A program made the position numbers and the translations under genes. From NCBI GenBank assembly GCA_021785155.1, contig JAJYGE010000385.1:1-8162 (forward strand): a stretch of 8,162 nucleotides of DNA, written 5' to 3'. This DNA comes from Planctomycetota bacterium (GTDB lineage: Bacteria; Planctomycetota; Phycisphaerae; WQYP01). Of this stretch, positions 772-7,985 are shown piece by piece. The stretch's first letter is position 1; each line of letters starts with the position of its first letter. A model generated the notes under the pieces. That model saw only the letters and a program-made list of their open reading frames with translations, was not told the origin of the DNA and made no database searches.

Positions 772-2082
772 TCACGACCCTTCGGCACGGTGGTGGGAAA
801 TAGAAACATCCGCCGCAACCAAGCCGGTATCACCGGTCATGTTGCTTGACGGATTTTCAGCGGGCTTCAGCCACCACGAAATCAGGAGACCGACAATGGC
901 TATGATCAGACAGGCATAATACGCCAGGCGATAGTGAGCATGAAAATTAACGAGATATCCGACAATCAGTGAAGCAAGAATAGTAGCAATGGCGCGGGTT
1001 ATCTGGATCACGCCGAATACAGCGCCACGCATGTCTTCGGAAACACCTTCAAATGTCAAGGCCAGAATAGCGCTCATCTGTATCGTATAAGCCACAAAAT
1101 AGATGATTTGCACCAGCATCAGAGCTAACCAGTGACGGACAAATAACGCCATGGCGGCGGCCGCGATGATCCAGAGCGCAAAGGCCACCATCATCATGCG
1201 CCGCGGTGTGATCGTATCCACCGCATATCCCAGCGGCACGGCCAGCAGCAGGGCTATGATCGTCCCGGGAAACATGGCTTTGCCAAGCTGCCCCAGTGTA
1301 AAATGCAGGACACGTGTGACATAAAGTGATTGAAACAACACCATTGTAACCGGAAAAGCCAGTGCCGCCGCAGCGATAATGGAGATCATTGCATAGCGCC
1401 GATGCTCCCATAGCAGATGAATATGCGCCACTGGATTGTAGCGTGCCGGAACCGGAGTATGTGTGACATTTTCGGGAGTCATAAGCAGGCAGGGGATGGC
1501 CAGAGCTGTAATGATCGCTCCGGTTAAATAGGGGTAAAAGCCGCTGATATCCGCCCAGTGCATCACATAATATGTCATAAACAGTGTCATCAAGCCGCTT
1601 ATGAACATGCGGACAGACCCCGCTGTTCCCAGCCATCGTTGTTCAAGCACGGCGGGATAAAGTGTGGTGTGAGCGCTTAAATTAATTTCCTGACACATTT
1701 GCCACAGGATAAATACGCCGGCTACCGCTGCCAGCGCGTATACCGTGTGGTAATCACTTTTGGGAATCCATTCAGGCAGCAATCCGAGAAGGATGACAAA
1801 AATGGCCGTTCCCGGAAGCGAAACAAGAAGAAATGGCTTCCGTCGCCCGAACCGGCTGCGGATATGGTCGGCTTTCCACGCCACATACGGCTGAAGTGTA
1901 CAGCCCAAAAGGCGGTGCACATTCACCAGAATTGCGATGAGGAACAAATTGCCGGTAAATCCGCGAAATGTAACCACCACAATATTGAAGAAAATGAAAT
2001 CATTGGCATCAAGTGCGGTGCCTATATACCCCATCAATCCCATATTCAACGGCATGTGTTTGGTCTTTTCGACCGCCATCAT
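772..2082 (-). CDS. MFS permease, probable sugar/cation symporter (GPH / SLC45-like)
   Basis: Inner-membrane carrier of 436 aa with about 12 strongly hydrophobic segments in two halves, the usual MFS size. The loop between TM2 and TM3 carries the signature KADHIRSRFGRRKP (residues 70-83; D72, R77, G79, R80, R81), the form typical of glycoside-pentoside-hexuronide symporters and sucrose-type SLC45 carriers. A weaker copy, PLGYAVDTITPRR (283-295, D289), lies in the matching loop of the second half. ATG at 2080-2082 was chosen because GGGGAG lies five bases upstream; the next codon is also ATG (8-base spacing), and a TTG at 2097 lacks this support. A sigma-70-like promoter lies at 2150-2178. It is divergent from the sulfatase and faces the GH2 gene, so uptake of a sugar released from a sulfated glycan is likely. 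The transported compound is inferred, not shown. The C-terminal tail after the last membrane segment is short and polar. Confidence 0.92.
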   Translation of the reverse strand: MMAVEKTKHMPLNMGLMGYIGTALDANDFIFFNIVVVTFRGFTGNLFLIAILVNVHRLLGCTLQPYVAWKADHIRSRFGRRKPFLLVSLPGTAIFVILLGLLPEWIPKSDYHTVYALAAVAGVFILWQMCQEINLSAHTTLYPAVLEQRWLGTAGSVRMFISGLMTLFMTYYVMHWADISGFYPYLTGAIITALAIPCLLMTPENVTHTPVPARYNPVAHIHLLWEHRRYAMISIIAAAALAFPVTMVLFQSLYVTRVLHFTLGQLGKAMFPGTIIALLLAVPLGYAVDTITPRRMMMVAFALWIIAAAAMALFVRHWLALMLVQIIYFVAYTIQMSAILALTFEGVSEDMRGAVFGVIQITRAIATILASLIVGYLVNFHAHYRLAYYACLIIAIVGLLISWWLKPAENPSSNMTGDTGLVAADVSISHHRAEGS

Positions 2083-2149
2083 TGTTGCTCCCCGCAATGG
2101 GTTGTGTCCCGCTTTCTGTTAAAAATAAAAGGCGGCACGGATACGCAAC

Positions 2150-2178
2150 ACAATACGCCGTGGTTGGGGTGAGGTCAA
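2150..2178 (-). promoter_or_regulatory. Sigma-70-like promoter of the permease gene
   Basis: On the minus strand TTGACC (2173-2178) is followed by exactly 17 bases and then TATTGT (2150-2155). This matches the -35 box at 5 of 6 positions and the -10 box at 4 of 6, with ideal spacing. Transcription would start near 2143, giving a leader of about 60 nt before the permease ATG at 2082. Read by eye only. Confidence 0.45.
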
Positions 2179-2205
2179 CCCGACATTCCGGCGCTTCCAA
2201 AAACG

Positions 2206-2227
2206 TCAGAAGTCATTTATTCAGAAG
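2206..2227. repeat. TCAGAAG direct repeat, possible operator half-sites
   Basis: TCAGAAG occurs twice, starting at 2206 and 2221 (15-bp period), between the permease promoter and the presumed sulfatase promoter. AraC-type proteins, including XylR relatives, often bind tandem direct half-sites, and such a regulator is encoded at 4344-5549. The link is inference; a 7-bp repeat can arise by chance. Confidence 0.2.
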
Positions 2228-2365
2228 AACCGATTTTCTTTTTCCGGCGTGGGGGAATAAAATCCATTTTATGGTCAGGCTAATATTGCAAGCTTGGCAC
2301 GCTGACAGGCCGTGGCCGGTTACGATTTCCTCCTCGCATTGATTCACAGGAGAAGGACAATAAAA

Positions 2366-3880
2366 ATGGTAAAACCCAAGCAAGTTATTTTCATCATGAC
2401 CGACACGCAACGCACCGATATGCTGGGTTGCTATGGCAACCCGGCTATGAAAACCCCGGGAATTGATTCTCTGGCCGGCGGAGGCGTTCGCTTTGAAAAA
2501 TCCTACACCTGCCAGCCGGTTTGTGGTCCGGCTCGCAGCGCAATTTTCACCGGCACCTGGCCGCACTCCAACGGCTGCTGGGCCAATAATATGCCGCTGG
2601 GCGATAATATAAAAACCGTCGGCCAGCGACTGCGGGATCACGGCATCCACTGTGGCTACATCGGCAAATGGCACCTGGACGGCAGCGATTATTTTGGCCT
2701 GGGGCGGTGCGCTGATGGCTGGGACCCGAAATACTGGTACGACATGCGCTGTTACGTGGAAGAACTGTCGGAATCGGATCGCCGGCGCTCGCGGTACACG
2801 TCAACCAATGGTGATCTCCGGCTGGAAGCGCCGTTTACTTATGCGCATCGGTGTTCCAATCGCGCCATCGAATTCCTGCGCAACCATGCCGCTGAAGATT
2901 ATTTTCTGGTTGTTTCATATGACGAGCCACACCATCCGTTTTTATGTCCCCGGCCATTTTCGGAGATGTATCGTAATTATGTCTGGCCGCGCACGCGCAA
3001 TCATTTTGATGGTCTTGATGACAAACCTGAGCATCACCGTGTCTGGGCGGCGAGCCTGCCTTGCGAAGACCCGGCGAAGCGCACGTATGACGTGGCGGAT
3101 TACCTGGGTTGCAATTCCTTTGTTGATTATGAAATCGGTCGCGTTCTGGAAGCCGCGTCCGATTCAGCTTCCGGAGCCATGATCATTTATACTTCCGATC
3201 ACGGCGATGCTCTATATTCACACGGCATTAATAACAAAGGGCCGGCAGCGTATGATGAAATAACGCGCATTCCGTTAATCGTCCGCTGGCCGGATGAAGC
3301 GCCATCCGGCGCGACCTGTCGACTGCCGGTATCACATATCGACCTGGTTCCGACAATTATGGATGCTTTGGGCGTTCCGATCCCCCGGTCACTGGAAGGA
3401 AGGAGCATGTTGTCGACCATTCGTAACCCGGTGGTTCCCACGAACAGTGAAATCTTTATTGAATATGGGCGCTACGAGGTGGATCACGACGGATTCGGGG
3501 GATTTCAGCCAATGCGAGCTGTTTGTGATGGCCAGCATAAATTGGCCATCAATCTGCTGAGTTCCGACGAACTTTATGATCTGCGCAGCGATCCACAGGA
3601 GCTGATCAATCTTATCAATTCGCCTGTCCATCGTGCCATTCGAGATAGTCTGCATGACCGTCTACTGGACTGGATGAATCGCACGCGCGATCCGTTCCGT
3701 GGATACTACTGGGAACGCAGGCCTTGGCGCGCAAACGCCCGTCCTGCAACCTGGGATTACACCGGCATGACGCGACAACGGGAAAATGAGGAATATGAAC
3801 CGCGTCAGTTGGATTACGATACAGGCCTGCCCATGCATGAGGCGGTGCGCTCCAAATCACCGCCCGAGTTACGAGACTGA
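2366..3880 (+). CDS. Cys-type sulfatase (S1 family), no visible signal peptide
   Basis: Alkaline-phosphatase-fold sulfatase of 504 aa that hydrolyses sulfate esters using formylglycine. Seen: IFIMTDTQRTDMLGCYG near the N-terminus with metal-binding D13; the formylglycine motif C53-G-P-A-R57, meaning activation by a formylglycine-generating enzyme; G100-K-W-H103; D186-E-P-H-H-P; and T-S-D278-H279-G-D with H286 and K291 of the NNKG motif. The C-terminal part has the usual DELYDLRSDPQELINL segment and a tail with a DYDTGLPM stretch. The second Asp of the common DD pair is Thr14 here. ATG 2366 was chosen because AGGAGAAGG precedes it by 9 bases. Neither this start nor the in-frame GTG at 2312 gives a signal peptide, so a cytosolic place is inferred, unlike many exported sulfatases. 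It is divergent from the permease, suggesting that an imported sulfated sugar is desulfated inside. The substrate is not evident; a sulfatase or phosphonate-monoester-hydrolase-like side activity cannot be excluded. Confidence 0.94.
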   Translation: MVKPKQVIFIMTDTQRTDMLGCYGNPAMKTPGIDSLAGGGVRFEKSYTCQPVCGPARSAIFTGTWPHSNGCWANNMPLGDNIKTVGQRLRDHGIHCGYIGKWHLDGSDYFGLGRCADGWDPKYWYDMRCYVEELSESDRRRSRYTSTNGDLRLEAPFTYAHRCSNRAIEFLRNHAAEDYFLVVSYDEPHHPFLCPRPFSEMYRNYVWPRTRNHFDGLDDKPEHHRVWAASLPCEDPAKRTYDVADYLGCNSFVDYEIGRVLEAASDSASGAMIIYTSDHGDALYSHGINNKGPAAYDEITRIPLIVRWPDEAPSGATCRLPVSHIDLVPTIMDALGVPIPRSLEGRSMLSTIRNPVVPTNSEIFIEYGRYEVDHDGFGGFQPMRAVCDGQHKLAINLLSSDELYDLRSDPQELINLINSPVHRAIRDSLHDRLLDWMNRTRDPFRGYYWERRPWRANARPATWDYTGMTRQRENEEYEPRQLDYDTGLPMHEAVRSKSPPELRD

Positions 3881-4343
3881 TTGCACCGTATGAAAGTGTG
3901 AATTGGTTATAATTTTACATGCGCCATTTTTATTCCAGTACCACATGTTTTTCCCGTTTATTCGGTGCCGCAAGAGAACCGGTGTGAACACGGTGCGGCG
4001 CTATCAGGCCATCCAGACGTCTGCCGCCATGACCATGGTGGTACACACCCTATCGGCCACGATCCTGACTGCCCCCTTCCCGATACGAAGGCAAAAGCCT
4101 TTCATCAATCCGACAGGTGCTGCGACAGAATAGCAGGCAGTGGCTTCTCCTTTCACCGCATAAACCGTTACATGCGCAGAAACGCAATCTTTTTAAACAG
4201 AGATATACGCAACGCGGATTCCGGTGAGTAGAGTTGCCAACATATCGGAAATGGCGCAGAATCTCTGTGTCGGCATATTGCGAGGCTGGCCAATAAGAAG
4301 CGTTAAATCAGTGCTGACCCATGTTGTGGAATAAGTGTTCGTT
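3881..4343. other. Gene-poor spacer between sulfatase and regulator
   Basis: No convincing gene lies in these 463 bases. A hairpin GAAGGC/GCCTTT with an AAAA loop sits at 4087-4102 but lacks a proper T run. GCGCAGAA occurs at 4174-4181 and 4254-4261, the second overlapping the predicted regulator -10. On the minus strand a frame of about 60 codons (roughly 4010-4190, ending in tandem stops TGA TAG) reads partly like protein (CYSVAAPVGLMKGF) but has no good start; it could be a decayed gene. Plus-strand frames of 76 and 88 codons here lack ribosome-binding sites and recognisable motifs. Confidence 0.5.
4234..4262 (+). promoter_or_regulatory. Candidate promoter of the XylR-type regulator
   Basis: TTGCCA (4234-4239), a 17-base spacer, and CAGAAT (4257-4262) match the sigma-70 -35 box at 5 of 6 and the -10 box at 4 of 6 positions. 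Transcription would begin near 4269, about 75 nt before the ATG at 4344. Read by eye only. Confidence 0.33.
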
Positions 4344-5549
4344 ATGCACACGATAGCTTTGATTATTGATACGGTCGGCAGCTATGGCAGGGGATTACTT
4401 AGTGGCGTAGCACGGTTTGTGCAAACACATATCGGCTGGCAGGTGATTTATGAAGAACGCAAAGGAATCGACAATTTGCCCAAATGGCTGGTGCGCGGAA
4501 GCTGTCAAGGCGTGCTGGCACGGGTGAGAGATGACAGACAACTGGCATCCTTGCGGCGGCTGGGTATGCCGCTGGTAAGCCTTGGGGAAGTGTCACATCC
4601 AGCGGCTGGAATGGCGGAGATACTCAGTGATCATCGCATGATTGGGCAACTCGCGGCTGAGCATTTAATTGGGCGGCAACTGCGACACTTCGGATTTTAT
4701 GGCTCCGGTGGCGCGGCATTTTCCGATCTGAGACTGGATGGATTTCGCACTTATCTTGCAGGACACAAGCAGCAGGCGCACATTTTTCTGGAAGAGAAAT
4801 GGGGGCCTGGCCTTCCCAATAATACACGCCGGGGCGATCCATTCTGGGAAGATGCGAAACTGAATCAATGGCTCAAGCAATTGCCCAAACCCATCGGAAT
4901 CATGGCCTGCAATGATTATTTTGGCAGACTGCTGTTAAGCGCCTGCCGGCGCAACGAAGTCCATGTACCCAATGAAGTGGCCGTCATTGGCGTGGACAAT
5001 GATGAAATTATCTGCGATTTGGCGGTGCCACCGCTGACCAGCGTAGATCCCGCGGCCGATGCCGTTGGCTTTCGTGCTGCGGAATTACTGGATGAAATGC
5101 TTCATGGTCGGAGTATACCGCCCGGGACGATTTATTTTCCACCCAAGGCCGTGGTGGCCCGCGCCAGCACGAATACGATTGCCGTTGCGGACATGGTCAT
5201 TGTTCAGGCACTGCAGTTTATACGGGATCAGGGCGGGATCGGCATAAGCACAGAAGATATTCTGGATCATTTGGCAAAATCCTCGCTGCTGGTATCCCGC
5301 AGCACACTGGAACGCAGATTTCAAGCGCAATTGGGATTTGCGCCGCACGATGAAATAGCCCGCGTTCGCCTGGAACGAATAGAGCGACTGCTCACGAGCA
5401 CCAATTATTCACTGGCCCGCATCGCCGATATTGTCGGCATGGGCACAGAGCAGCAATTAACCGCCTTTTTTCGGCGCCATCGGGGTATGACACCGGGAAC
5501 ATTTCGGCGAACCTTCGGGGCTGGCAAACCGCGGAATTCAGGTGGCTAA
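4344..5549 (+). CDS. XylR-type transcriptional regulator (LacI-like sensor + AraC HTH)
   Basis: Cytosolic DNA-binding regulator of 401 aa with the same architecture as E. coli XylR (about 390 aa). Residues 1-280 form a LacI/periplasmic-binding-like ligand domain without the N-terminal LacI helix-turn-helix: the opening IALIIDTVGSYGRGLLSGV, then C-N190-D191-Y-F-G-R-L-L, then V-I-G-V-D218-N-D-E-I-I-C-D followed by PPLTSVDPAADAVGF. Residues about 285-395 are an AraC domain: VSRSTLERRF (317-326) in the first helix-turn-helix, RVRLERIERLL, IADIVGMGTEQQLTAFFRRH in the second, and GMTPGTFRRTF at the end. ATG 4344 is preferred over GTG 4335 because GGAATAA lies about 10 bases upstream. By family precedent it activates sugar-catabolism genes when a monosaccharide binds; the likely targets here are the permease and sulfatase. 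The specific ligand is unknown; xylose should not be assumed. The gene carries its own candidate promoter at 4234-4262. Confidence 0.9.
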   Translation: MHTIALIIDTVGSYGRGLLSGVARFVQTHIGWQVIYEERKGIDNLPKWLVRGSCQGVLARVRDDRQLASLRRLGMPLVSLGEVSHPAAGMAEILSDHRMIGQLAAEHLIGRQLRHFGFYGSGGAAFSDLRLDGFRTYLAGHKQQAHIFLEEKWGPGLPNNTRRGDPFWEDAKLNQWLKQLPKPIGIMACNDYFGRLLLSACRRNEVHVPNEVAVIGVDNDEIICDLAVPPLTSVDPAADAVGFRAAELLDEMLHGRSIPPGTIYFPPKAVVARASTNTIAVADMVIVQALQFIRDQGGIGISTEDILDHLAKSSLLVSRSTLERRFQAQLGFAPHDEIARVRLERIERLLTSTNYSLARIADIVGMGTEQQLTAFFRRHRGMTPGTFRRTFGAGKPRNSGG

Positions 5550-5844
5550 GTTCTTTGGCTGCCGACAATAGCTCCAGTAAGGCCGATAACGCCGGAATCC
5601 TCTTGACGCAATTTATTACAACACAAGATTCAATTTGCTCCTTCCATCGCAGTCTATTTCGATCTATAGTTCACTTGTCGTGTGGATGGCCGCCTGCCGC
5701 AAATTATGTGGGGGCGGACAAAAGTTGCGTATTGCGGGTCGGATTGGTTGATTGGATGTTGTTTCTTCAAGGAGTTCTCAACTCCATAGTGGCTGGCCGT
5801 GCGGTTGGCGTGGAGTGGGAGAGCAAAATGGGTCTTTTAATTAT
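5550..5844. other. Untranslated stretch between regulator and PEP-CTERM module
   Basis: About 295 bases with no believable gene. Seen here: TTGACG at 5603-5608 without a good -10; a two-part stem CCGCC..CCGC / GTGG..GGCGG at 5690-5717 with an AAATTAT loop (one G-U pair); and a perfect 6-bp hairpin GGAGTT-CTC-AACTCC at 5771-5785. None is followed by a T run, so none looks like an intrinsic terminator. A 141-codon frame across 5555-5980 has no motif and collides with the leader structures, so it is treated as chance. The promoter of the PEP-CTERM gene probably lies here but I cannot place it. Confidence 0.5.
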
Positions 5845-5867
5845 GGAGGTTTGGTATGAGTACCAAA
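5845..5867 (+). promoter_or_regulatory. Strong Shine-Dalgarno with its start codon in a hairpin
   Basis: GGAGG (5845-5849) stands six bases ahead of an ATG at 5856, the best ribosome-binding site in this part. TTTGGTA (5850-5856) pairs perfectly with TACCAAA (5861-5867) around a TGAG loop, so the A of the ATG is in the stem and the rest of the codon in the loop. The frame runs without a stop into the PEP-CTERM gene, so this could be an alternative start adding 38 residues before the signal peptide, or a remnant of an older start. It has no counterpart before the second copy of the leader. Confidence 0.4.
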
Positions 5868-5880
5868 ACAAGTATCGTTA

Positions 5881-5984
5881 CATCCGCCGCAACTTGTTGC
5901 GGCAAACCGTCGTCCATTCGGTCAATGGACAGTTCGAACAGCTTCAATATGGAGCGAAAGGGATCGTTTATGTTTTCTAATCGT
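5881..5984 (+). repeat. Duplicated structured leader, copy 1 (before PEP-CTERM gene)
   Basis: The first of two related leader segments. Hairpin A: GCCGCAA (5886-5892), CTTG loop, TTGCGGC (5897-5903). Then AAACCGTC. Hairpin B: GTCCATT (5912-5918), CGGTC loop, AATGGAC (5924-5930). Its 5897-5935 core matches 36 of 39 bases of 6970-7008. Similarity resumes over AATATGGxGCGxAAGG, the ribosome-binding site and the first codons MFxNR of the coding region. A 2-nt length difference in the loop region of hairpin A puts the copies in different frames upstream, so the conserved part is not kept as protein. Most likely it is part of a 5' untranslated RNA. It matches no riboswitch class I can name. Confidence 0.7.
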
Positions 5985-6773
5985 CTATCGCTGGTTTCCA
6001 GTGGCTGTTGTCTGGCCGCGGTGGCGTTCACAATTGCGGCAGTAGCTGGGCTGGATGGCACGGCCTCAGCTGCGGTTATTTATCAGGATAGCTTCAACCG
6101 CACCGGCGCGTTAAACGGGTCAACGCCGTCGCCCACGGATTCCAACTCGGCAACTTGGACCGCTCCTAGCTCCTCTTCGTATGCCTCCACAACCGGCGGC
6201 CAAGCGAGCTTTAACGGATCTGATCGTGTAACGGCTTACTTGCCATTTACGCCCGTGAGCGGCAATATCTACACTTTGACGGCGAGCTTGGACCCCGGGA
6301 ATTCCGGGAACGGAAACTGGCTGGGATTCGGATTTTTTACAAGCCCAACTACCACTCTATCTCCGTCTTCCGCCGCATCCATTTTAATGCTTGAGGGTGG
6401 CAACCGGAGCAGCCAGGCTTTGAATGGCGAGGAAACTGCTCCTGGCAAGTTCGCCAGCTTTGCTGGACCAACCTCTCCCAACAACCCTGGCTATACAACG
6501 TGGCAAATAACGCTCAATACCACGCAAACATACTGGACCAGCAGCTTCAGCGAGGTCGGAGTTCCCGGCGAGAATAATTTCTATACATACACATACAGTA
6601 GTGCGCATGCGAACCCGGCGATTACCTCGGTCGGAATCGGCAACTACCTCGTAGGTGGAACACTGCAGAATTTCACGCTGGCTACGGAGCCGGTGCCTGA
6701 GCCGGCGACGCTGGGACTGGTGGCGGTTGGCGGATTGGGGTTGCTGCTGGTAAGGCGGCGGAAAGTAGTGTAG
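5970..6773 (+). CDS. Secreted PEP-CTERM protein, probable jelly-roll (LamG-like) body
   Basis: Protein of 267 aa. Residues 1-34 are a signal peptide: MFSNR, then a hydrophobic core CCLAAVAFTIAAVAGL, with an A32-S-A34 cleavage site. The mature part starts VIYQDSFNRTGALNGS and is rich in Ser, Thr, Gly, Asn and aromatic residues, with NWLGFGFF and TTWQITLN stretches; this looks like a concanavalin/LamG-like beta-sandwich, as in many PEP-CTERM proteins, but no catalytic residues are evident. The C-terminus is a full PEP-CTERM sorting signal: V242-P-E-P-A, a hydrophobic helix (LGLVAVGGLGLLLV) and RRRK. By family knowledge an exosortase cuts or anchors it at the cell surface. ATG 5970 puts the signal peptide at the N-terminus, with AAAGGG 7 bases upstream; ATG 5949 and ATG 5856 are also in frame. 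It follows the structured leader 5881-5930. Binding partner or role is unknown. Confidence 0.9.
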   Translation: MFSNRLSLVSSGCCLAAVAFTIAAVAGLDGTASAAVIYQDSFNRTGALNGSTPSPTDSNSATWTAPSSSSYASTTGGQASFNGSDRVTAYLPFTPVSGNIYTLTASLDPGNSGNGNWLGFGFFTSPTTTLSPSSAASILMLEGGNRSSQALNGEETAPGKFASFAGPTSPNNPGYTTWQITLNTTQTYWTSSFSEVGVPGENNFYTYTYSSAHANPAITSVGIGNYLVGGTLQNFTLATEPVPEPATLGLVAVGGLGLLLVRRRKVV

Positions 6774-6775
6774 TG

Positions 6776-6870
6776 TCTGTCACAGCAGAGTGTTAGGGTT
6801 GACGAGGAACCCTGGCGATGGTTGGTGTGCCCTTTGAGAGGCAGCCAACGTAGAATTTTGATGTGACAGA
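6776..6870 (+). ncRNA. Possible multibranched RNA fold after the PEP-CTERM gene
   Basis: TCTGTCACA (6776-6784) pairs perfectly over 9 bp with TGTGACAGA (6862-6870). Enclosed are hairpin AGGGTT/AACCCT (6795-6800 / 6808-6813) and a bulged hairpin GTTGG..TGCC / GGCA.CCAAC (6821-6831 / 6840-6849). Together they would make a three-way junction starting two bases after the PEP-CTERM stop. It may be a 3' untranslated structure or part of the prepilin leader. There is only one copy, so no covariation supports it; this is a hand-drawn fold. Confidence 0.3.
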
Positions 6871-6898
6871 GTCGCAGGTAATGAATGCTGATTATGCT

Positions 6899-6944
6899 CC
6901 GGCCAGTCGCGCGGTTTCGCCTGTGCGACTGCCCCGGAACTTTT
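6899..6944 (+). terminator. Strong hairpin, candidate terminator or attenuator
   Basis: CCGG (6899-6902) + CAGTCGC (6904-6910) pair with GCGACTG (6925-6931) + CCGG (6934-6937), 11 bp interrupted by a 1x2 internal loop. AAC and TTTT (6941-6944) follow. This could end the PEP-CTERM transcript, though the T run is short. It sits only 12 bases before the second structured leader, so attenuation of read-through into the prepilin gene is also possible. Confidence 0.35.
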
Positions 6945-6955
6945 GGAGATAATCC

Positions 6956-7061
6956 CATCCGCCGCGCCGTTGCGGCAAACCGTCGCCCATTCGGTTAATG
7001 GGCAGTTCAGACGTCTCCAAATAATATGGTGCGGAAGGAGTCATTTATGTTTCCCAACCGT
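6956..7061 (+). repeat. Duplicated structured leader, copy 2 (before prepilin gene)
   Basis: The second copy of the leader seen at 5881-5984. Hairpin A: GCCGC (6961-6965) / GCGGC (6972-6976), shorter than in copy 1. Hairpin B: GCCCATT (6985-6991), CGGTT loop, AATGGGC (6997-7003). Compared with copy 1, T5913-A5929 has become C6986-G7002, which keeps the pair; the third core difference is in the loop (5923 C, 6996 T). The linker GGCAAACCGTCG is identical. The spacing from hairpin B to the ATG is 43 nt here and 39 nt in copy 1. The ribosome-binding site GGAAGGAG is at 7033-7040. Confidence 0.7.
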
Positions 7062-7985
7062 TTCCTGCAATCGGCTCGTAACCCCAGGCGCGGTTTTACG
7101 CTCGTTGAGCTGTTGGTGGTGATCTCCATCATCGCGTTGCTGATCGCGCTGTTGCTGCCGGCGCTGGCGATGGCGAAGCAAGATGCGAACAGCATGTCCT
7201 GTACTGCCAGGCTACGGTCGCTTGGCCAGCTTACAGCGGAATACGTGCAAACGTACAGGGGTATGTTGCCCCCCGGACTCATATCATCGACTATTCCGGG
7301 CTGGGGGGGCTTGCAGGGCATAAACGAGACTGACAGTTCCTTTGGTTGGAGCGATTTTCTTTACCAATACTCGGAGGGCCTGCCGACGCTCGGCCAGCTT
7401 TGGCAACCAAATTCTGGCGGGATATGCATACCGAGCATTGAGGCCAAGTGGGTAGGATTATTCCAGTGTCCTTCCGCAGTGCTCCCCAACCAGGTAAACT
7501 ACACCCATTGGACCGGCTGGTACGATCAGAACTACGAAGCGAATCCGAATATATTCGTGAACGGCTTATTTGCAACCAGGGGGGGCAAAGGAGAGATTTC
7601 CAGCCTTCCCATGAGTATGATTCAATCTTCGGCTCATTGCTTGGAATATATCGACGCGGTCCAACAACAGTCGGATGGTAACGCCTGGTGGACGCTGAAC
7701 TATACTTACAATCCCGCCGTGTACGGCTGGTATAATACATTACAATGGACTCCGACCTCGCCGCCTATGCCTTCGACACCCATATCGACCGCCATTATCC
7801 TGCCGATCGGTAATTCGGATTGGACTGCCGGCGCTCCCACTTATGATTTCACTCCTCGTTATCGCCACATGATGACCAGTGCGACTAACAGCGGATACGC
7901 CAACGCTGTTTTTGCCGACGGGCATGCCGCTGCCGTAAAACAATACGGTCTGTATGTGTATAACCTGCTTCCAACGACCAATTGA
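7047..7985 (+). CDS. Prepilin-type N-methylation protein (type II secretion pseudopilin-like)
   Basis: Protein of 312 aa. A short basic leader (MFPNRFLQSARNPRR) ends at G16, followed by F17-T-L-V-E21 and a hydrophobic helix rich in V, I, L and A: the classic type IV prepilin site, cut after G16 and methylated on F17 by prepilin peptidase. The body is rich in Trp, Tyr, Gly and Pro, including a WTGWYDQNYEANPN stretch. Near the C-terminus R273-H274 and NAVFA-D291-G292-H293 resemble the H-X9-DG domain of planctomycete and verrucomicrobial pseudopilin-like proteins, but H274 lies 16 residues before DG rather than nine. ATG 7047 has GGAAGGAG six bases upstream; ATG 7026 is in frame but would add seven residues and lacks support. 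Such proteins occur in many copies per genome in this group and their function is mostly unknown; role in a pilus, secretion or surface layer is open. It shares its leader with the PEP-CTERM gene. Confidence 0.92.
   Translation: MFPNRFLQSARNPRRGFTLVELLVVISIIALLIALLLPALAMAKQDANSMSCTARLRSLGQLTAEYVQTYRGMLPPGLISSTIPGWGGLQGINETDSSFGWSDFLYQYSEGLPTLGQLWQPNSGGICIPSIEAKWVGLFQCPSAVLPNQVNYTHWTGWYDQNYEANPNIFVNGLFATRGGKGEISSLPMSMIQSSAHCLEYIDAVQQQSDGNAWWTLNYTYNPAVYGWYNTLQWTPTSPPMPSTPISTAIILPIGNSDWTAGAPTYDFTPRYRHMMTSATNSGYANAVFADGHAAAVKQYGLYVYNLLPTTN

What the first reader, a model, noticed from the sequence alone, without database searches (positions are those of the whole stretch)
5881..7061. Two copies of a structured leader with a compensated base pair, in front of two unrelated surface-type genes
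The 39-base cores 5897-5935 and 6970-7008 differ at three positions. Two are the partners of one base pair in hairpin B (T5913-A5929 versus C6986-G7002) and the third is in its loop, which is what selection on an RNA structure would leave. The genes behind them, a PEP-CTERM protein and a pseudopilin, share no mature sequence. An indel shifts the frame between copies, so the conservation is not for protein. The linker GGCAAACCGTCG between the hairpins is unchanged and could be a binding site for a protein, a small RNA or a ligand. This may be an undescribed cis-regulatory RNA that co-controls cell-envelope genes; alternatively it is a recent duplication of a promoter/leader cassette.
Basis: partly seen in the sequence, partly recalled or inferred. 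Interest (0 to 1): 0.78.

Follow-up and report, generated by a model that had tools for sequence, protein, structure and literature searches.

The report
Shared RNA leader of surface-protein genes
Two genes in this bacterial DNA begin with copies of the same folded RNA leader; related bacteria carry up to about twenty such copies, mostly just before genes for anchored surface proteins, so it looks like an undescribed RNA control element for the cell surface.

Summary
Both copies (5880-5972, 6955-7049) belong to a structured RNA family found in 18 of 258 sampled genomes of one planctomycete class (Phycisphaerae by inference), with 2-22 matches in each of 13 genomes. A model built without copy A scores it 76 bits. 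Structure: hairpin A, linker ACCG, hairpin B with a CGG loop (possible pseudoknot), hairpin C, Shine-Dalgarno, ATG. All 19 modelled pairs show double-sided changes; 91% of cells pair, against 69 +/- 4% in a tree-simulated null. No Rfam family matches the leaders.

Of 110 distinct downstream genes, 76 match PEP-CTERM (exosortase sorting signal) and 5 the pilin motif. Six leaders read in five further genomes precede PEP-CTERM-type genes, one of them truncated.

Most likely it is a cis-acting leader that co-controls translation or stability of these mRNAs. Ligand, mechanism and transcription start are unknown: Shine-Dalgarno accessibility shows no bias, promoters are not clearly enriched, pseudoknot covariation is weak. 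Predicted c-di-GMP riboswitches before Methylophaga PEP-CTERM genes are a precedent in another RNA class.

The parts
5880..5972 (+). Leader RNA copy A (model R1, positions 1-90), before the PEP-CTERM gene
   Evidence: 76.4 bits, not in the training set
5886..5903 (+). Copy A hairpin A (GCCGCAA-cttg-TTGCGGC)
   Evidence: fold; pairs vary on both sides in the family
5904..5911 (+). Copy A linker AAACCGTC; CCG 5907-5909 could pair with CGG 5919-5921 (pseudoknot, inferred)
   Evidence: 96.1% of cells pair in the family, but shuffles reach this in 32 of 500
5912..5930 (+). Copy A hairpin B (GTCCATT-cggtc-AATGGAC), contains T5913-A5929
5941..5955 (+). Copy A hairpin C (GCTTCA-ata-TGGAGC)
5957..5972 (+). 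Shine-Dalgarno-like AAAGGGA and start codon ATG 5970-5972
   Evidence: spacing family-wide
5970..6773 (+). PEP-CTERM (exosortase-substrate) gene, 267 aa from ATG 5970
   Evidence: PF07589 27.8 bits, TIGR02595
5792..5809 (+). Upstream hairpin P1 (GCTGGCC-GTGC-GGTTGGC), shared by a subset of copies
5845..5858 (+). GGAGG and upstream ATG 5856, in frame and open to the PEP-CTERM gene through the leader
   Evidence: no codon-level constraint in the subgroup tested
6955..7049 (+). Leader RNA copy B (model R1, positions 1-90), before the prepilin-type gene
   Evidence: 72.4 bits (in the training set)
6961..6976 (+). Copy B hairpin A (GCCGC...GCGGC)
6977..6984 (+). Copy B linker AAACCGTC
6985..7003 (+). 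Copy B hairpin B (GCCCATT-cggtt-AATGGGC), contains C6986-G7002
7013..7032 (+). Copy B hairpin C, imperfect (4 of 6 standard pairs)
7033..7049 (+). Shine-Dalgarno GGAAGGAG and start codon ATG 7047-7049
7047..7985 (+). Prepilin-type (pseudopilin-like) gene, 312 aa from ATG 7047
   Evidence: (scanned from ATG 7026)

Best explanation
It is a family of structured 5' leader RNAs in one lineage of planctomycetes. Each copy lies directly before a start codon and folds into hairpin A, a short linker with CCG, hairpin B (whose CGG loop may pair with that CCG), hairpin C and the Shine-Dalgarno. Shown: it is one family; the fold is kept by compensatory change with G-U tolerated on the sense strand; copies sit at a near-fixed distance before start codons, mostly of exosortase-substrate (PEP-CTERM) genes and some pilin-type genes. 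Inferred: it is transcribed as part of the mRNA leader and acts in cis after transcription; the A-linker-B part is recognised by one shared trans-acting factor (a metabolite such as a second messenger, or an RNA-binding protein), and hairpin C beside the Shine-Dalgarno passes this on to ribosome loading or mRNA life-time, so that many unlike surface proteins are set together. I put 0.97 on a real structured RNA family, about 0.55 on control of translation initiation and about 0.25 on mainly mRNA stability.
For: 126 matches in 13 genomes, 114 of them at 29 bits or more. Copy A, left out of training, scores 76.4 bits. 107 distinct rows: all 19 pairs with double-sided changes, 237 such cells against 75.6 +/- 6.5 in shuffles, 91.3% of cells paired against 79.8% shuffled and 31-61% with partners slid. 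Tree-simulated null from a fully paired root, 105 rows, 200 simulations: 69.4 +/- 4.4% paired (max 81.0) against 91.4%, and 51 +/- 19 double-change cells (max 114) against 229. Stem cells hold 165 G-U and 40 A-C, against 260 and 151 shuffled. Shine-Dalgarno to ATG spacing 6-7 nt in 88 of 102 cores. Of 110 downstream genes, 76 match PF07589 and 5 PF07963. In five further genomes, six of their 13 matches were read and all six precede PEP-CTERM-type genes, one truncated, whereas three matches of 26.5-28 bits do not. The upstream frame is not under codon selection.
Against: No expression or probing data. Shine-Dalgarno accessibility equals that of leaders with shuffled upstream part (0.42 against 0.40; higher in 50 of 102), so no conserved occluding or exposing fold is seen. 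Alternative pairing of hairpin C with the Shine-Dalgarno is not kept where C arms change (by eye). Sigma-70-like sites upstream are not clearly enriched (16 of 56 against 11.2 +/- 2.6) and none is found in window 5540-7060. Pseudoknot covariation is weak. In each of the 13 genomes PEP-CTERM matches (20-72) outnumber the leaders (2-22), so most or many substrates may lack it. The pair counts use an alignment fitted to the structure.
Confidence: 0.75

Rival explanations
1. A passive 5' mRNA stabiliser: the hairpins protect surface-protein mRNAs from decay and keep the ribosome-binding site in order, without sensing anything.
For: Three hairpins in a row close to the likely 5' end: eight copies, several of them related, have a -10-like box 24-27 nt before the model start (noticed after the fact). 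No switch in Shine-Dalgarno accessibility. Precedent: the E. coli ompA leader (recalled, not looked up).
Against: The near-invariant CCG in the linker and CGG in the loop (92 of 111 rows) suggest a specific partner or tertiary fold; a stabiliser would need pairing only.
Confidence: 0.25
2. A promoter/leader cassette that spreads by duplication; the likeness is common descent and the hairpins are incidental.
For: Like leaders stand before unlike proteins, and tandem leaders occur before single genes in L033, L060, L061, L069, L134 and L142. Window copies A and B are neighbours.
Against: Pairing and double-sided changes exceed neutral evolution on the same tree in 200 of 200 simulations; G-U is kept but A-C avoided; promoter-like sites are not clearly enriched upstream.
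Confidence: 0.05
3. Conserved coding sequence: the leader encodes a conserved N-terminal extension of the surface proteins, and the palindromes follow from it.
For: 40 of 119 matches have an upstream ATG with Shine-Dalgarno, in frame and open to the gene, and gene callers use it. In L034 and L040 the usual inner ATG is missing.
Against: 65 of 119 matches have no such ATG. pN/pS over 108 pairs of 25 sequences is 0.82 in this frame and 0.83 and 0.80 in the two wrong frames.
Confidence: 0.03
4. A DNA operator: the inverted repeats are binding sites of a transcription factor rather than RNA.
For: Hairpin B is a near-perfect dyad.
Against: Stem sequences change freely while pairing is kept, G-U exceeds A-C four to one against 1.7 to one shuffled, and position is tied to the start codon. 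A sigma-54-like site is not enriched in 150 nt upstream.
Confidence: 0.04

Closest known systems
c-di-GMP-I riboswitches predicted before PEP-CTERM genes in Methylophaga nitratireducenticrescens GP59 (PMC12530212, passages read)
   Same: Structured RNA upstream of several PEP-CTERM genes of one genome (four there, PEP-CTERM or VPLPA-CTERM), suggesting RNA-level co-control of exosortase substrates
   Different: Different RNA class: no Rfam family, c-di-GMP-I included, matches the leaders tested here; other phylum. The shared string GGCAAACC (recalled from the c-di-GMP-I consensus) is not kept across our family
Sigma-54 cis-regulatory DNA site of proteobacterial PEP-CTERM genes with PrsK/PrsR (Haft et al. 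2006, PMC1569441, passages read)
   Same: Shared upstream element of many PEP-CTERM genes in one genome (99 of 167 proteobacterial genes there); a regulon of surface proteins
   Different: DNA site for an enhancer-dependent sigma factor, proteobacteria only; ours is a folded leader at the start codon, and no sigma-54-like site is enriched upstream
Rhodopirellula-1 motif (Weinberg et al. 2010, PMC2864571, Table 1 passage only)
   Same: Candidate cis-regulatory motif listed for Planctomycetes and Proteobacteria
   Different: Marked doubtful as RNA there and without an Rfam accession; its sequence and targets were not available here, so identity is not excluded
Small pseudoknotted riboswitches such as preQ1-I and SAM-II (recalled)
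   Same: H-type pseudoknot close to a Shine-Dalgarno would be a similar layout if the CCG-CGG pairing is real
   Different: No Rfam match; targets are surface proteins, not a metabolic pathway; no ligand known

Membership tests
Any Rfam 15 family (4227 models, incl. c-di-GMP-I) | Covariance-model match over the leader | tested here: not met
   Window: 0 matches at E<=1. 12 loci: two sub-threshold matches (E 0.05 and 0.51), both away from the leaders
Structured cis-acting leader RNA (kind, not family) | Conserved fold supported by covariation | tested here: met
   R-scape itself was not available
Structured cis-acting leader RNA (kind, not family) | Fixed place before start codons of functionally related genes | tested here: met
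   Spacing; 76 PEP-CTERM and 5 pilin-motif of 110 genes
Structured cis-acting leader RNA (kind, not family) | Transcribed as part of the mRNA | tested here: inconclusive
   Promoter-like sites not clearly enriched, none in window 5540-7060; no RNA-seq
Riboswitch | Ligand-binding aptamer | not testable with these tools
   No binding data; near-invariant CCG/CGG only hints
Riboswitch | Expression platform with mutually exclusive folds | tested here: inconclusive
   No bias in Shine-Dalgarno accessibility; no conserved anti-Shine-Dalgarno seen by eye
Haft sigma-54 PEP-CTERM site | -24(GG)/-12(GC) promoter element upstream | tested here: not met
   At most 3 mismatches to a recalled consensus: 2 of 110 upstream stretches of about 150 nt, shuffled 2.8 +/- 1.4
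Rhodopirellula-1 motif | Published consensus sequence and structure | not testable with these tools
   Only its table row is in the main text; a word search for it found 0 papers

The most novel reading that the evidence does not exclude
A new sensory RNA class (riboswitch, perhaps for a second messenger, or a protein-bound translational operator) that governs an exosortase-substrate regulon in Phycisphaerae: one signal read by the A-linker-B domain sets a dozen or more unlike surface proteins and some pilins at once. It would be an independent counterpart, with another fold, of the c-di-GMP riboswitches predicted before PEP-CTERM genes in Methylophaga.
Probability: 0.4. Interest if true: 0.86.

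Novelty: new variant of a known kind. Interest (0 to 1): 0.71.

Why it matters
How PEP-CTERM surface proteins are regulated outside Proteobacteria was left open in 2006, whose authors wrote that further regulatory elements remained to be found (PMC1569441, passages). This gives a defined element with over a hundred natural variants to test. It is an unusual layout: a folded leader attached to a sorting class of proteins rather than to a pathway. If it is a riboswitch, its ligand would report what these planctomycetes sense when they set their surface; a second-messenger ligand would match the c-di-GMP riboswitches predicted before PEP-CTERM genes elsewhere.

Tried and rejected
Exact-pattern scans of genome and viral contigs with patterns taken from copies A and B gave 17 and 6 stretches, all judged chance by eye. 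The pattern demanded CAGTTC, which most relatives lack (CAATTC is common), so the one genome scan was badly aimed.

Whole-genome search with the translated leader gave one weak match each in a phylum draw of 392 and an order draw of 301, both judged chance; only the class draw found the family (13 of 397). The XylR-type protein search, meant to place the window, found nothing above 41% identity among the matches listed.

Hairpin C as an anti-Shine-Dalgarno switch: considered and not supported. A common sigma-70 promoter: not clearly enriched. A first tree-simulated null with random root was no fair yardstick for pairing and was replaced. A first sigma-54 scan had a spacing error and was replaced. 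Viral contigs and plasmids held no relative at the sensitivity used.

Matches of 26.5-28 bits in G387, G116 and G157 (L167, L169, L170) have no PEP-CTERM gene behind them and were rejected as chance; hence 18, not 19, of 258 genomes.

Full report
Observation. The two cores differ at three of 39 positions, two of them the partners of one pair in hairpin B. The likeness extends over the whole leader into the start codons. The genes behind are a PEP-CTERM protein and a prepilin-type protein. The window's own genome is not held, so relatives had to be found elsewhere.

Finding the family. Copy A is open in frame with its gene, so I searched the protein database with the translated leader only (residues 1-50). 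Twelve proteins came back, one of them the window's own. Six carry the precomputed PF07589 and five more end in a PEP-type tail by eye; one is named as from a Phycisphaerae bacterium. Their later parts differ while the leader peptide is alike. A second search with another leader gave 13 more, 8 with PF07589 and the other 5 with a PEP tail by eye. A made-up consensus peptide found two short fragments. A profile of the peptide found 13 of 397 genomes in a class-level draw, after one chance-like match each in a phylum draw of 392 and an order draw of 301. The class is not named by the tool; Phycisphaerae is inferred from the one named protein.

RNA model. From 19 DNA leaders, copy B among them and copy A not, I built model R1 (90 positions, 19 pairs). 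It finds 126 matches at E<=0.01 in the 13 genomes (2 to 22 per genome), 114 of them at 29 bits or more, and the two window copies at 76.4 and 72.4 bits. R1's E-values are rough. In a draw of 258 genomes of the class, 19 have a match at E<=1e-4. One (G387, 26.5 bits) I reject; five of the other 18 are new (G701, G715, G723, G767, G805). In a draw of 189 genomes of the phylum only two matches of 27-28 bits appear, both rejected. The draws overlap, so these numbers do not add up, and the phylum draw is too thin to fix the limits of the family.

Independent check. Of the 13 matches in the five new genomes I read six. All six stand before a protein with a signal-peptide-like start; five of these end in PEP-CTERM-type tails and one is cut by the end of the sequence held. 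The three matches of 26.5-28 bits do not. About 29 bits is a fair working threshold, though two real-looking copies score less (L037 at 25.9; L043, cut by a contig end, at 20.7).

Covariation. On 107 distinct aligned matches (two chance-like rows included) all 19 pairs show changes on both sides that keep pairing: 237 such cells against 75.6 +/- 6.5 in shuffles; 91.3% of cells paired against 79.8%. Sliding partners by 1-3 columns gives 31-61%. Since related sequences can fool shuffles, I simulated 200 alignments on the inferred tree from a fully paired consensus root, 105 rows: 69.4 +/- 4.4% paired (max 81.0) and 51 +/- 19 double-change cells (max 114), against 91.4% and 229 observed. The alignment was fitted to the structure and includes the training rows, which favours it. 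RNAalifold on the same alignment predicted 9 pairs, in hairpins A and B only, all 9 with double-sided changes; hairpin C was not recovered there. Stem cells hold 165 G-U and 40 A-C, against 260 and 151 shuffled, as expected of sense-strand RNA.

Anatomy. Hairpin A varies widely (GCCGC/GCGGC, GTCCCG/CGGGAC, GGCCGC/GCGGCC and others). CCG in the linker and CGG in the loop of B stand together in 92 of 111 rows and could pair as a three-base-pair pseudoknot: 96.1% of cells pair, against 63% or less when slid, but shuffles reach the observed value in 32 of 500. One compensated CCT/AGG occurs in L083 and again in the related L162; L067 fits with a shifted register. Hairpin C abuts the Shine-Dalgarno, which lies 6-7 nt from ATG in 88 of 102 cores.

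Targets. The two model runs gave 124 matches (111 and 13). Five look like chance and were dropped, leaving 119, the window's two included. Nine of the lowest-scoring rows were not fetched. Merging six tandem leaders of one gene and dropping three fragments leaves 110 genes. 76 match PF07589 and 5 match PF07963 at E<=0.01; NCBIfam gives 72 and 5. A looser regular expression classed 85 of the 119 rows as PEP-CTERM and 4 as pilin, leaving 30: 14 not complete in the sequence held (one of them a pilin, L040), 9 with a near-PEP or PEP-like hydrophobic tail, one pilin (L066), one URO-D-like gene (L148; URO-D is found once among the 110) and five broken or doubtful. In the 13 genomes PEP-CTERM matches number 20 to 72, more than the leaders in every one, so the leader marks a subset.

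Upstream reading frame. 40 of 119 matches have an upstream ATG with Shine-Dalgarno in frame and open to the gene; 65 have no such ATG, in any frame. A further hairpin P1 is found upstream in 27 rows by a loose pattern, 24 of them 79-89 nt before the model start. In 25 of the 40 sequences, 108 pairs, pN/pS is 0.82 in this frame and 0.83 and 0.80 in the wrong ones. So the frame is kept open but its peptide shows no codon-level selection. The genomes were first chosen by this peptide, which may inflate the share.

Mechanism. What is shown is a maintained sense-strand fold at a near-fixed place before a functional class of genes. That it acts after transcription is inferred from position. Against simple occlusion: Shine-Dalgarno accessibility is 0.42 against 0.40 with the upstream part shuffled, higher in 50 of 102. 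Against a mapped start: sigma-70-like sites are found in 16 of 56 upstreams against 11.2 +/- 2.6, none in window 5540-7060; eight copies, several related, have a -10-like box 24-27 nt before the model start, noticed after the fact. I hold translational control by a shared trans-acting factor as most likely and passive stabilisation as the main rival.

Known systems. No Rfam family matches the leaders. Haft et al. 2006 (passages) describe a sigma-54 site before 99 of 167 proteobacterial PEP-CTERM genes and say that others remain unexplained; no such site is enriched here. PMC12530212 (passages) lists c-di-GMP riboswitches before four PEP-CTERM-type genes of Methylophaga, so RNA control of this protein class has a predicted precedent in another RNA class. 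Word searches of the paper library (listings, with PMC1569441, PMC2864571, PMC12078418 and PMC12530212 opened by passages) showed no leader RNA of planctomycete PEP-CTERM genes. PMC10599522, listed, was not opened. That library lacks most subscription papers, and the Rhodopirellula-1 motif could not be compared.

Noticed in passing
window 5792-5809; 27 rows: A second conserved hairpin (P1, GCCAACC-GTGT-GGTTGGC type, with compensated variants such as L045) lies 79-89 nt before the leader in 24 of 27 rows and is followed in many copies by Shine-Dalgarno and an in-frame ATG; it may be a second RNA element.
   Followed up: partly
L033, L060, L061, L069, L134, L142: Two leaders in tandem before one gene, the upstream one ending in its own Shine-Dalgarno and ATG.
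   Followed up: partly
L148:301-1431: A leader (46 bits) before a uroporphyrinogen-decarboxylase-like gene, the one clear non-surface target seen.
   Followed up: no
L034 and L040 (match 1568-1659): The usual inner ATG after the leader is missing; only the upstream in-frame ATG can start the gene, so the extended N-terminus may be used there.
   Followed up: partly
13 genomes: 20-72 PEP-CTERM matches per genome, more than the leaders in each; upstream regions of the others were not examined.
   Followed up: no
window 772-5549: Sugar-type MFS transporter, sulfatase and a XylR-like (periplasmic-binding plus AraC) regulator lie upstream, like a sulfated-polysaccharide use cluster.
   Followed up: no
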